From: an uncultured Oscillospiraceae bacterium
GTDB taxonomy: Bacteria > Bacillota > Clostridia > Oscillospirales > Oscillospiraceae
NCBI GenBank assembly: GCA_905234855.1
Contig: CAJOIU010000003.1
Span: 1-64,000, forward strand
DNA: 64,000 nucleotides
Reading direction: 5' to 3'
Part shown: positions 28,718-55,201 of the stretch, in pieces
How positions within the stretch are numbered: position 1 is the first letter of the stretch
How the letters are laid out: each line of letters opens with the position of its first letter
Notes under the pieces: model-generated
Databases searched by the model: none
What the model saw: only the letters and a program-made list of their open reading frames with translations
What the model was told of the DNA's origin: nothing
Program-made: the position numbers and the translations under genes

Positions 28718-28794
<77 letters not shown>

Positions 28795-52956: not shown

Positions 52957-53601
52957 ATGCGCTGGCAGAACATCTTCTTCGATCTTGACGGCACCATCAC
53001 CGATTCCGCGCCGGGCATCACCAACTCCATTATTTATGCGCGGAAAAAATGGGGCATGGAGCCCGGCGTCAACGCCGACTACCTGAAATTCATCGGCCCG
53101 CCCATGCCCCAGAGCTATGAGGAATTTTGGGGCTTCTCCCATGAGGACGCCGTGCGGTTTCTGGCGGATTACCGAGAGTATTTCGGAACCAAGGGTTTGT
53201 TTGAAAACTCCGTCTATCCCGGTATGCTCGACCTTTTCGAGGCGCTGAACGCGGCGGGCGGCAAGCTCTATATCGCTACCACGAAGCCCACCGGCTTTTC
53301 GGAGCAGATCGCAGAGCGTTTCGGGTTCCGGCGATATTTCGAGATCGTCTCAGGCAGCGACCCCAAAAAAGACAACACAAAATATGACGTCATCGAAAAC
53401 GCCCGCGCGGCCTGCGGCGTCGATATGACGAGCGCCGTCATGATCGGCGACCGCTCCCATGATGTGGAAGGCGCGCACCTGCACGGCATCCCCTGCATCG
53501 GTGTTACCTATGGCTTCGGCTCCCGGGAGGAGCTGGAGGACGCAGGGGCAGATTATCTGGCTGCCTCCGCGGAGGAGCTGCGGAAAATTCTGCTTGCATA
53601 A
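52957..53601 (+). CDS. HAD hydrolase, phosphoglycolate-phosphatase-like
   Basis: A 214-residue HAD-IA phosphatase. Motif I is FFDLDGTITDSAPGI (D9 and D11), motif II IATTKPTGF, motif III KKDNTKYD and motif IV MIGDRSHDVEGA. A helical cap lies between motif I and II. Starting 6 bases after the permease, it is probably in the importer operon and may dephosphorylate a nucleotide or sugar phosphate released in nucleoside use. Length and motifs match 5'-nucleotidase-like HADs; specificity is not determinable. Confidence 0.85.
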   Translation: MRWQNIFFDLDGTITDSAPGITNSIIYARKKWGMEPGVNADYLKFIGPPMPQSYEEFWGFSHEDAVRFLADYREYFGTKGLFENSVYPGMLDLFEALNAAGGKLYIATTKPTGFSEQIAERFGFRRYFEIVSGSDPKKDNTKYDVIENARAACGVDMTSAVMIGDRSHDVEGAHLHGIPCIGVTYGFGSREELEDAGADYLAASAEELRKILLA

Positions 53602-53669
53602 TCCCACGTTTTTTCATATGATAGCATATGGAAATAATACCCATTTTGTTTTTGAAAGGAAGTGAAGCA

Positions 53670-53738
53670 ATGGACGCAGGCGATAGTACCGGCACAAAAC
53701 GAGGCCATCCGGCGCGGGCGTCCGTTGCCCGCGGCTGA
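53670..53738 (+). CDS. Short upstream ORF (22 codons) in the mgtE leader
   Basis: ATG 53670 follows AAAGGAAGTGAAGCA, a good ribosome binding site, and encodes MDAGDSTGTKRGHPARASVA plus two residues before TGA. It overlaps the 5' half of the structured leader, so translation of this peptide would disturb that fold. Early acidic residues followed by basic ones are reminiscent of the short Mg-responsive leader peptides of enteric bacteria, though no sequence similarity is claimed. Coding status is uncertain: the region can also be read as pure RNA structure. Confidence 0.4.
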   Translation: MDAGDSTGTKRGHPARASVARG

Positions 53739-53812
53739 TTCCTCCCGCTTTGTGCCTTACTCCTGCCTTTCCGGCTCGGCCGGACGCGAGCACAAGCTCG
53801 ACTTGAAATGAA
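53674..53812 (+). promoter_or_regulatory. Structured leader RNA before mgtE, candidate riboswitch or attenuator
   Basis: Nested complementary segments: GCAGG (53676-53680)/CCTGC (53762-53766), AGTA (685-688)/TACT (758-761), GGCACAAA (53691-53698)/TTTGTGCC (53749-53756), GAGG (701-704)/CCTC (741-744), inner hairpin GCGGGC/GCCCGC (53714-53719/53727-53732). Two further hairpins follow: TCCGGC-TCG-GCCGGA (53770-53784) and CGAGC-ACAA-GCTCG (53787-53800). mgtE's AAGGAGG starts at 53811. I do not recognise the M-box signature (GUUAGGUGAGGCUC). No T-run terminator is seen, so control, if any, would be translational or by leader translation. Confidence 0.65.
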
Positions 53813-53824
53813 GGAGGAAGGATC

Positions 53825-55201
53825 ATGGCTGAACGCAGCGCTACCCTTGAAAAAACCATCGAAACCCTGACCGAACAGAAGAAATACCCCGCCCTGCGGG
53901 ATATCCTCGTCACCATGAACCCGGCGGACGTGGCCGCCCTGTTCGACGCTTTGGAGGAGCGTACCCTGCCGCTCCTGTTCCGGCTGCTGCCGAAGGATAT
54001 CGCGGCAGAGACCTTCGTGGAAATGGAGCCGGATTCACAGGAGCTTCTCATCCGCGGCTTTTCCGACAGCGAGCTCAAGGAGGTCGTGGATGAGCTGTAT
54101 GTGGACGACGCGGTGGATCTCGTGGAGGAGATGCCCGCAAATGTCGTCAAGCGCATCCTGCGGCAGGCGGACGCCGAGACCCGCAAGCTCATAAACGATA
54201 TCCTCAAATACCCCGAGGATTCCGCCGGCTCCATTATGACGACGGAGTTCATCGAGCTCCGCCCCAGCATGACCGTTGCGGATGCCGTAAAAAATATCCG
54301 GCGCAACGGCCTCGATTCCGAAACCATCAACACCTGCTATGTCGTGGACGACGGCAAGCATCTCTTGGGCACTATTTCCATTCGCGACCTCATTCTCGCG
54401 GAGGAGGACGCGAAGCTGTCCGATATCATGGAGGAGAACGTCATATCCGTCAGCACGATGACGGATCAGGAAGAAGCCACCGCCATGATCTCCCGCTACA
54501 ACTTCACCGTGCTGCCCGTGGTGGACGGCGAGGGACGCCTCGTCGGCATCATCACTGTGGACGACGCCATGGATGTCATGGAGGACGAGGCCACCGAGGA
54601 CATCGAGATCATGGGCGGCGTCACCCCTGTGGATAAGCCCTACCTCAAAACCGGCGCTTTTCAGTTCTGGCGCGCCCGCATCCCATGGCTCCTTCTGCTG
54701 ATGATCGGCGCGACCTTCACCGGTATGATCCTCAACCACTATGAAAACGCCCTCGCCCGCATCACGGCGCTCACGCTGTTCATCCCCATGCTGATGGACA
54801 CCGGCGGCAACTCCGGCTCACAGAGCTCCGTTACCGTCATCCGCGCCCTCTCGCTGGGGGATCTTGAATTCAAGGATATCCTGTCCGTCATCTGGAAGGA
54901 GATCCGCGTCGCCTTTCTCTGCGGCGTATCGCTGGCCTGCGTCGCTTTTTTGAAGATCATGCTGATCGATCATCTGCTGCTGCAGAACGACGACGTCACC
55001 GTCCTCGTGGCGCTGACCGTCTGCGTCACCATGGTACTGGTCGTCCTCGTGGCCAAGCTCATCGGCTGCACGCTGCCGATGCTGGCGGAAAAGCTGGGCT
55101 TCGACCCCGCTGTTATGTCGAGCCCCTTCATCACCACCATCGTGGACGCGCTCTCCCTGCTTATTTACTTCGCCATCGCCAGCGCCGTCCTCGGCGCATA
55201 G
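53825..55201 (+). CDS. mgtE: MgtE-type magnesium transporter
   Basis: A 458-residue Mg2+ channel/transporter. The N domain (about 1-130) is acidic and helical, two CBS domains follow (about 140-260; SAGSIMTTEFI, YVVDDGKHLLGTISIRDL, FTVLPVVDGEGRLVGII), and the membrane domain (about 285-455) has the pore segments with LTLFIPMLMDTGGNSGSQSS, the family signature, and two further helices. ATG 53825 follows AAGGAGGAAGG. The N/CBS part senses intracellular Mg2+ in MgtE; the leader upstream could add a second layer of control. Confidence 0.94.
   Translation: MAERSATLEKTIETLTEQKKYPALRDILVTMNPADVAALFDALEERTLPLLFRLLPKDIAAETFVEMEPDSQELLIRGFSDSELKEVVDELYVDDAVDLVEEMPANVVKRILRQADAETRKLINDILKYPEDSAGSIMTTEFIELRPSMTVADAVKNIRRNGLDSETINTCYVVDDGKHLLGTISIRDLILAEEDAKLSDIMEENVISVSTMTDQEEATAMISRYNFTVLPVVDGEGRLVGIITVDDAMDVMEDEATEDIEIMGGVTPVDKPYLKTGAFQFWRARIPWLLLLMIGATFTGMILNHYENALARITALTLFIPMLMDTGGNSGSQSSVTVIRALSLGDLEFKDILSVIWKEIRVAFLCGVSLACVAFLKIMLIDHLLLQNDDVTVLVALTVCVTMVLVVLVAKLIGCTLPMLAEKLGFDPAVMSSPFITTIVDALSLLIYFAIASAVLGA

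What the first reader, a model, noticed from the sequence alone, without database searches (positions are those of the whole stretch)
53670..53824. Structured mgtE leader with a 22-codon upstream ORF
The 5' region of mgtE forms a rod of at least four nested paired segments (outermost GCAGG/CCTGC over 91 nt) plus two perfect hairpins, directly before the ribosome binding site. An upstream ORF with a good Shine-Dalgarno overlaps the 5' half. This could be a magnesium sensor different from the M-box: either a riboswitch, or a leader peptide whose translation alters the fold. The pairing is seen; magnesium response is inference from the downstream gene.
Basis: partly seen in the sequence, partly recalled or inferred. 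Interest (0 to 1): 0.75.

Follow-up and report, generated by a model that had tools for sequence, protein, structure and literature searches.

The report
Leader-peptide switch before magnesium transporter
In front of a magnesium-transporter gene this bacterium carries a tiny gene embedded in a foldable RNA; the same arrangement recurs before magnesium genes in many Clostridia and looks like an undescribed leader-peptide switch for magnesium uptake, though its response to magnesium is untested.

Summary
The window's mgtE leader has a 22-codon uORF (53670-53738) inside a foldable RNA and matches no Rfam family. The leader occurs in 33 of 35 same-genus genomes, always before mgtE, in 81 of 400 family genomes and in other families of the order and class. 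Of 70 newly read family matches 67 precede mgtE, 2 mgtA, 1 ends with its contig. Three loci have an M-box upstream of such a uORF. The uORF shows a coding signature. Three pairings co-evolve in 24-25 of 28 genera: uORF start x uORF end, uORF x post-stop arm, post-stop arm x mgtE ribosome site; the last two overlap and exclude each other. Best reading: ribosomes on the uORF decide whether the mgtE site is hidden, much as in Salmonella mgtQ, with magnesium acting through ribosome stability on early codons. Pairings, coding and gene association are shown; magnesium response and sign are inferred, and ribosome-masking folds did not clearly support the simplest sign. A new variant of a known kind; nine literature searches found no description.

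The parts
53655..53662 (+). Shine-Dalgarno-like site of the uORF (AAAGGAAG)
   Evidence: Sequence; purine-rich stretch kept upstream of the uORF in the alignments
53670..53738 (+). uORF (leader peptide), 22 codons: MDAGDSTGTKRGHPARASVARG, stop TGA
   Evidence: ATGGA invariant in the 33 genus leaders; codon-position signature
53667..53677 (+). start stem, 5' arm (GCAATGGACGC): holds the uORF start codon
   Evidence: 11-bp uninterrupted helix with 53718-53728; co-evolves in 24 of 28 genera
53718..53728 (+). start stem, 3' arm (GCGTCCGTTGC), within the second half of the uORF
53676..53680 (+). P0 5' arm (GCAGG), partner 53762-53766
53762..53766 (+). P0 3' arm (CCTGC)
53685..53688 (+). P0 inner 5' arm (AGTA), partner 53758-53761 (TACT)
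   Evidence: Ser codons at codons 5-8 are AGY in 215 of 217
53691..53698 (+). P1a 5' arm (GGCACAAA), codons 8-10 of the uORF
53749..53756 (+). P1a 3' arm (TTTGTGCC), downstream of the uORF stop
53701..53704 (+). P1b 5' arm (GAGG), partner 53741-53744 (CCTC); AGGCCG/CGGCCT-type pairing in other leaders of the genus
53713..53733 (+). P2 hairpin (arms 53713-53720 and 53726-53733) at the end of the uORF
   Evidence: GCGGGCG/CGCCCGC pairs 96.4% of cells in the genus
53747..53764 (+). anti-Shine-Dalgarno arm; overlaps the P1a and P0 3' arms, so it excludes them
   Evidence: Pairs with 53812-53829 when the uORF is kept single-stranded; co-evolves with the mgtE site in 25 of 28 genera
53770..53800 (+). 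two extra hairpins (53770-53784, 53787-53800), only in a subset of leaders of the genus
53812..53817 (+). mgtE Shine-Dalgarno (AGGAGG)
53825..55201 (+). mgtE, magnesium transporter, 458 aa
   Evidence: Pfam MgtE 130.3 bits, MgtE_N, CBS

Best explanation
It is a cis-acting leader of the mgtE mRNA in which a short leader-peptide gene (uORF) and an RNA switch are built into each other. The RNA can pair in two main ways. In one, the uORF start codon pairs with the end of the uORF and the stretch after the uORF stop pairs with the mgtE ribosome site, so mgtE is off. In the other, the middle of the uORF pairs with the stretch after its stop (P0/P1), and the mgtE site is released. A ribosome crossing the whole uORF removes the 5' arm of P0/P1 and leaves mgtE off. 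A ribosome that opens the start stem but pauses or falls off early lets P0/P1 form and mgtE turns on. The most likely signal is low magnesium, acting through ribosome stability on the conserved early codons (MD-A-G-x-S). Shown by computation: coding signature, co-evolving pairings, mutual exclusion of P1/P0 and the anti-SD pairing by overlap, association with magnesium genes. Inferred: uORF translation in the cell, magnesium response, sign of control, the early-codon sensor. In a few distant relatives the output may be a transcription terminator instead.
For: Conservation: 33 of 35 same-genus genomes, all before mgtE; the two without it gave only CBS-range hits for MgtE and are 64% and 73% complete. 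Model R1: 81 of 400 family genomes, 29 of 106 genera. Of 74 other-genus matches, 4 were known mgtE leaders (L036-L039) and 70 were newly read: 67 precede mgtE, 2 mgtA, 1 ends at a contig edge. Outside the family in the order 13 of 14 read matches precede mgtE, 1 a CNNM gene; in the class 13 of 15 precede mgtE, 2 look like chance. A pattern scan blind to the downstream gene: 56 of 60 stretches have mgtE next, 3 end too early, 1 is chance. Coding: third-position entropy 1.76 and 1.68 bits at codons 3 and 4 against 0.14-0.48 at positions 1-2; GGNCGA in frame in 96 of the 97 leaders, of 105, that have it in the searched span. Three pairings better than additive expectation in 24, 25 and 24 of 28 genera, p 2e-7, 2e-6, 5.5e-6. 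In free folds P1 is anticorrelated with anti-SD pairing over genus means, rho -0.57, p 0.0016. With the uORF masked, anti-SD:SD pairing averages 0.78 against 0.47 in shuffled leaders, and site accessibility with an early ribosome minus that with a fully covered uORF is +0.06 against -0.07 in shuffled, above shuffled in 25 of 28 genera, p 2e-6. Magnesium: M-box 96-163 nt upstream of an MD-type uORF in L206 (mgtA), L053 and L065 (mgtE; L065's uORF starts TTG). MD-type uORFs precede 11 of 28 family mgtA genes (9 of 26 without the two that R1 itself had found) but 1 of 257 other ORFs. Salmonella mgtQ has a similar plan of competing stems (PMC8092293: abstract and two results sections read).
Against: Masking folds do not clearly show the early-pause-on step: with a ribosome at codon 1 P1 rises (0.14 to 0.24) but mgtE-site accessibility does not (0.23 to 0.21); the highest value (0.31) is for a ribosome at codons 22-23 (no shuffled control). 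A mask at -17..+15 raised accessibility by more than 0.05 in 24 of 105 leaders, on average -0.04 (shuffled -0.06, p 0.14). In the window leader the free RNA has the more accessible site (0.60), a ribosome on codons 1-15 closes it, one on codons 17-21 does not; its P1 duplex is no better than expected. The acidic residue 2 is partly by construction: uORFs were picked by a rule asking for GAN as second codon. Every family match had one, but one of 27 out-of-family matches before a magnesium gene (L257) starts MNAG. The search model itself favours the genus's 5' letters. The known EPDP motif is absent: a second acidic residue at 3-6 in 34 of 105, Pro in 2 of 105. The leader is not universal: 319 of 400 family genomes gave no match, and of 21 other-genus mgtE genes read only 6 have a clear MDAG-type uORF. 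In mgtQ the competing stems share an arm; here the start stem and P1 use different parts of the uORF and exclude each other only if no pseudoknot forms. No expression, ribosome or magnesium data exist here.
Confidence: 0.6

Rival explanations
1. A true metal-sensing riboswitch: magnesium (or another ligand) stabilises one fold directly, perhaps as a pseudoknot, since the start stem and the uORF x post-stop helix interleave. The uORF would be secondary.
For: Strong nucleotide-level conservation beyond the peptide: AGY in 215 of 217 Ser codons at codons 5-8 and CGA in 86 of 103 Arg codons after GGN; co-evolving helices that interleave; magnesium genes downstream.
Against: Free third positions at codons 3 and 4 and indels in multiples of three point to selection on the peptide. 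I saw no conserved multi-stem junction in the alignments but did not test for one. By inference, a magnesium-stabilised P1 pseudoknot would free the mgtE site at high magnesium, the wrong sign for an importer. Pseudoknots could not be folded with these tools.
Confidence: 0.2
2. Amino-acid or tRNA attenuation: the uORF reads Ser, Gly or Arg supply through its AGY, GGC and CGA codons, and mgtE responds to starvation.
For: Ser-, Gly- and Arg-rich peptide with nearly fixed AGY and CGA codons.
Against: The downstream genes are magnesium transporters of unrelated families, not amino-acid genes. Much of the codon bias can come from the pairing partners (AGUA/UACU, GGCCG/CGGCC).
Confidence: 0.06
3. 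The uORF encodes a small protein that acts on its own, for example on MgtE, and the structure is incidental.
For: Conserved peptide start across 42 genera or families.
Against: Only about the first 14 residues are alike; the rest varies in sequence and length (20-38 codons). Pairings with the mgtE site co-evolve.
Confidence: 0.05
4. Transcription attenuation (intrinsic or Rho-dependent) rather than hiding of the ribosome site is the main output in this genus.
For: CGGCCTTTTT after the P1b 3' arm in 18 of 33 genus leaders resembles a weak terminator. Distant relatives have hairpins with U tails between uORF and gene (L252, L266-L268).
Against: In 77 of 105 leaders the longest U run between uORF stop and mgtE site is 4 or less; no terminator was called in the window on the mgtE strand. 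Anti-SD:SD pairing co-evolves. Rho could not be tested.
Confidence: 0.09

Closest known systems
mgtQ leader of mgtB in Salmonella (PMC8092293; abstract and two results sections read)
   Same: Short uORF before a magnesium transporter; alternative stems in which the uORF start region, a downstream part, an anti-RBS arm and the RBS compete; acidic residue at position 2; control of translation.
   Different: mgtQ has 8 codons and lies between mgtC and mgtB; here 20-38 codons in a leader of mgtE or mgtA in Clostridia. In mgtQ the stems share arm 2; here start stem and P1 use different parts of the uORF. Asp2 plus Glu5 there; here a second early acid only in some. Reporter tests in low-magnesium medium exist there, none here. 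Sequence similarity was not tested.
MgtL leader peptide of mgtA (E. coli/Salmonella; PMC11282234, passages read)
   Same: uORF before a magnesium transporter gene with an acidic start; some clostridial mgtA uORFs start MDPDGSPRR or MDSDGSP, close in style to the EPDP start described for MgtL.
   Different: MgtL works through Rho-dependent termination and needs EPDP; here Pro at residues 3-6 occurs in 2 of 105 mgtE leaders and the output appears to be ribosome-site hiding.
M-box (ykoK) magnesium riboswitch, RF00380
   Same: Precedes mgtE and mgtA; lies upstream of MD-type uORFs in three loci.
   Different: Different RNA; no match in the window and none found in the 35 same-genus genomes.
mgtE motif SRC-65-1 (PMC11109978, passages read)
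   Same: Structured leader of mgtE with the Shine-Dalgarno inside a stem.
   Different: Reported only in Thioalkalivibrio as a riboswitch candidate, no uORF mentioned in the passages read; its alignment was not available to compare.
M-box plus uORF in mycobacteria (PMC12810186, passages read)
   Same: A magnesium leader that combines an M-box, a conserved uORF and an anti-SD.
   Different: There the M-box controls the uORF and the peptide is mycobacterium-specific. Here an M-box was found in 8 of 99 relatives' genomes only.

Membership tests
M-box riboswitch (RF00380) | Match to the covariance model at gathering score | tested here: not met
   No hit in the window nor up to E 10 in 53500-53900; 0 of 35 same-genus genomes (stricter filters)
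Any Rfam 15 family | Match at gathering score | tested here: not met
   Only a tRNA at 28718-28791 in the whole window; nothing up to E 10 at 53500-53900
mgtQ-type translation-aborting uORF | uORF before a magnesium transporter gene | tested here: met
mgtQ-type translation-aborting uORF | Competing stems, one of which hides the RBS | tested here: met
   Co-evolution of three pairings; arms of P1/P0 and anti-SD overlap. The start stem and P1 interleave rather than share an arm
mgtQ-type translation-aborting uORF | Early acidic residues (2 and 5) that destabilise the ribosome | tested here: inconclusive
   Acidic residue 2 in 125 of 125 uORFs, but the picking rule asked for it; a second at 3-6 in 34 of 105
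mgtQ-type translation-aborting uORF | Magnesium-dependent expression | not testable with these tools
   Needs reporters
MgtL leader | EPDP-type acidic/proline start | tested here: not met
   Pro at residues 3-6 in 2 of 105
MgtL leader | Rho-dependent termination | not testable with these tools
   No Rho assay
mgtE motif SRC-65-1 | Match to its published alignment | not tested
   Supplementary alignment not available; reported only in Thioalkalivibrio

The most novel reading that the evidence does not exclude
Clostridia own a widespread ribosome-based magnesium sensor: a leader peptide starting MD-A-G-x-S-x-G, without the proline-acid motif of MgtL, whose early translation depends on magnesium. 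It is an independent counterpart of the enterobacterial MgtL/MgtQ leaders, is plugged into different outputs (hiding of the ribosome site, intrinsic terminators) and different magnesium genes (mgtE, mgtA, perhaps CNNM), and sometimes works in series with the M-box.
Probability: 0.45. Interest if true: 0.85.

Novelty: new variant of a known kind. Interest (0 to 1): 0.72.

Why it matters
If right, magnesium sensing by translating ribosomes is not an enterobacterial peculiarity but was also adopted in anaerobic Clostridia, many from gut and rumen samples; 91 of 99 relatives' genomes gave no M-box match. It offers a defined peptide start to test what makes a ribosome unstable at low magnesium, and a natural tandem of a direct ion riboswitch with a ribosome-read leader on the same gene.

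Tried and rejected
Rejected: M-box or other Rfam family. Rejected as main output in this genus: intrinsic terminator. Rejected: folding energy as sufficient evidence (z -1.74). Did not work: ribosome-masking folds did not show that an early ribosome frees the mgtE site. The first swap test did not correct for composition; the corrected test is. In the genus test the number of pairs changed on both sides (4) was reached by 16 of 500 shuffles and the number of further pair types (10) by 60 of 500. The alignment holds 11 opposite-strand or spurious rows among 111 and is fitted to the model's structure, so the counts (22 of 22 pairs with changes on both sides, covariation 0.237 against 0.102 shuffled) lean towards it. 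The anticorrelation of start stem and P1 in free folds (rho -0.85) is partly built in, because the program cannot form both.

Rows dropped: of 70 newly read other-genus matches, L082 (contig end), L112 and L120 (mgtA) and L103 (MgtE 27% identical, different uORF) are not among the 105 leaders; L109 was re-picked by hand. Of the 21 other-genus mgtE genes, L041, L043-L054, L064 and L065 were not used there; L044, L047, L053 and L065 have weaker MD/ME-type uORFs, the others none that I recognise. One out-of-family match (G583) was not read. L245 has a MgtE of 23% identity far downstream, and L263 its mgtE 661 nt away: weak cases. L252 (CNNM) scored E 0.0065 in a search of 394 genomes, so it could be chance. 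Of 29 family genomes with an mgtA over the cut-off, 28 were read (L232 is a partial gene); several of the 28 are close relatives. The simple terminator scan called none on the gene's strand in L252 or L266 (it allows loops of 3-8 only); the hairpins there come from folds.

Literature: nine searches found no description of this leader in their listings; only open-access papers are held. Papers not named as read were seen in listings only.

Full report
Observation. The sequence at 53670-53824 is as described: a 22-codon uORF with a Shine-Dalgarno-like site, nested paired segments, two further hairpins, then the mgtE ribosome site and start at 53825. MgtE is confirmed by Pfam. Folding energy alone is unremarkable (z -1.74), and the outermost stem forms in one fold but not in a slightly longer one. 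No Rfam family matches.

Conservation in the genus. A DNA search with 53600-53840 found the leader in 33 of 99 genomes searched, all 33 among the 35 of the same genus, own genome included. The two without it (G005, G032) gave only CBS-range hits for MgtE and are 64% and 73% complete. In all 33 the match lies directly before mgtE and carries a uORF of the kind MDAG(D/N/S)..TGTKRGR, with small variations. On the genus alignment A2 with the P1/P2 structure, 93.3% of cells pair against 38-51% when the partner is slid; 7 cells have changes on both sides against 2.0 in shuffles, though two of the five measures are reached by 16 and 60 of 500 shuffles.

Beyond the genus. Covariance model R1 matched 81 of 400 family genomes, 29 of 106 genera; 319 gave no match, so the leader is common but not universal, and the filters are strict. 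Of 74 other-genus matches, 4 were leaders already seen and 70 were newly read: 67 before mgtE, 2 before mgtA-type P-ATPase genes (G253, G107; TIGR01524 at 1163 and 1052 bits), 1 at a contig end. In the order 21 of 394 genomes matched; of 15 outside the family I read 14: 13 before mgtE, 1 (L252) before a CNNM/CorC gene. In the class 16 of 291 matched; of the 15 other than the own genome 13 lie before mgtE, 2 look like chance. A pattern scan of named genomes, blind to the downstream gene, gave 60 stretches: 56 with mgtE 112-275 nt downstream, 3 cut too short to tell, 1 chance match without a start codon. Record titles are mostly metagenome-assembled Oscillospiraceae, Ruminococcaceae and other Clostridia, and the cultured [Clostridium] viride DSM 6836.

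The uORF looks translated. In 125 uORFs grouped into 42 genera or families, third-position entropy at codons 3 and 4 is 1.76 and 1.68 bits; positions 1 and 2 have 0.14-0.48. The GGNCGA element keeps frame in 96 of the 97 leaders that have it (8 of 105 do not in the span searched), over five spacings that differ by whole codons. Residue 2 is D in 120 and E in 5, but the picking rule asked for GAN there; one out-of-family leader (L257) starts MNAG. The model also favours the genus's 5' letters. Length is 20-38 codons, and only about the first 14 residues are alike. AGY is used in 215 of 217 Ser codons at positions 5-8 and CGA in 86 of 103 Arg codons after GGN, so there is RNA-level or codon-level selection too.

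The switch. Three duplexes were tested in 105 leaders of 28 genera against partners from other genera with additive correction: uORF x post-stop arm better in 24 of 28 genera (p 2e-7), post-stop arm x mgtE site 25 of 28 (2e-6), uORF start x uORF end 24 of 28 (5.5e-6); against shuffled partners 27 of 28 each. Genera are not independent, so the p-values are a guide. For the window the last two hold and the first does not. The anti-SD arm (53747-53764) overlaps the P1a and P0 3' arms, so these exclude each other. In free folds P1 is anticorrelated with anti-SD pairing (genus means rho -0.57, p 0.0016) and with the start stem (rho -0.88); the latter is partly built in, since a nested fold cannot hold both, whereas a pseudoknot could.

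How it works. With the uORF masked as if translated, anti-SD:SD pairing averages 0.78 against 0.47 in shuffled leaders, so full translation should hide the mgtE site. An early ribosome raises P1 (0.19 to 0.38; above shuffled in 21 of 28 genera, p 0.00036) but not the accessibility of the site against the free RNA (-0.04; shuffled -0.06; p 0.14); against the fully covered uORF it is higher (+0.06; shuffled -0.07; 25 of 28 genera, p 2e-6). A codon-by-codon scan, without shuffled control, gives 0.23 free, 0.21 at codon 1, 0.14 at codons 8-14 and 0.31 at codons 22-23. So the sequence supports a ribosome-position switch, but not yet which position turns mgtE on. I prefer the early-pause version because of the known biology of mgtQ and MgtL (PMC8092293; PMC11282234 passages) and the conserved first codons. 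That step is inference.

Magnesium. The leader's genes are magnesium genes of two, perhaps three, unrelated families. In L206 an M-box, then the MDAG uORF 163 nt on, then mgtA; in L053 and L065 an M-box, then an MD-type uORF about 100 nt on (TTG start in L065), then mgtE; in L045 an M-box without such a uORF. The M-box was found in none of the 35 same-genus genomes and in 8 of 99 relatives. MD-type uORFs precede 11 of 28 mgtA genes of the family by a fixed rule, 15 of 28 if overlap with the gene or a TTG start is allowed, against 1 of 257 other ORFs of the control set (299 ORFs of the window and of loci fetched for the motif; the other 42 hits are mgtE, judged by eye from their starts).

Other outputs. 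In L252 an 18-bp hairpin with a U-rich tail, and in L266-L268 hairpins followed by five or six U, lie between uORF and gene; the simple scan did not call them. The output may be termination there.

Novelty. The plan resembles Salmonella mgtQ, the sequence family is not in Rfam 15, and nine literature searches found no account of it. The mgtE motif of PMC11109978 is reported only from Thioalkalivibrio (passages). Term searches inside PMC4072509 (no leader peptide or uORF), PMC2965389 (no mgtE, mgtA or magnesium) and PMC8632094 (no magnesium or mgt) found nothing of the kind. I file it as a new variant of a known kind: it works like mgtQ; membership by descent is not claimed.

Noticed in passing
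L206 (G253:C44), L053, L065: M-box riboswitch upstream of an MD-type uORF and a magnesium transporter gene: two magnesium-linked leaders in series.
   Followed up: partly
L252 1501-1680: uORF MDDGGSTDAEDD.. and an 18-bp terminator-like hairpin before a CNNM/CorC gene; possibly a transcription attenuator of the same kind, score near chance.
   Followed up: partly
L266, L267, L268 (one family, three genomes): uORF MDAGDSCDKRGKR.. before a distant mgtE with a terminator-like hairpin between, instead of a hidden ribosome site.
   Followed up: partly
L041 (G039:C27): A very acidic open frame (MDDLREDFYPDEEEDLEEFEE..) runs without a stop into mgtE (621-aa frame), which might itself burden translating ribosomes.
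   Followed up: no
uORFs of the 105 leaders: Arg after GGN is CGA in 86 of 103 and Ser at codons 5-8 is almost never TCN (2 of 217, in 125 uORFs); the last A of CGA is in no pair of the model.
   Followed up: no
L239: uORF MESGSSTGKPRWRLFAFMSI before mgtE; its PRWRLFAF end resembles the end of enterobacterial MgtL as I recall it (recall, from no call).
   Followed up: no
L209-L227, L233 (mgtA genes of the family): Several further uORF types before mgtA: MDSDGSP.., MDPDGSP.., MDTGSST.., MDNDRSS.., MDGNPRS..
   Followed up: partly
L017, L020, L026, L033: Extra stretch, partly hairpin-like, inserted between uORF end and P1 3' arm in some leaders of the genus.
   Followed up: no
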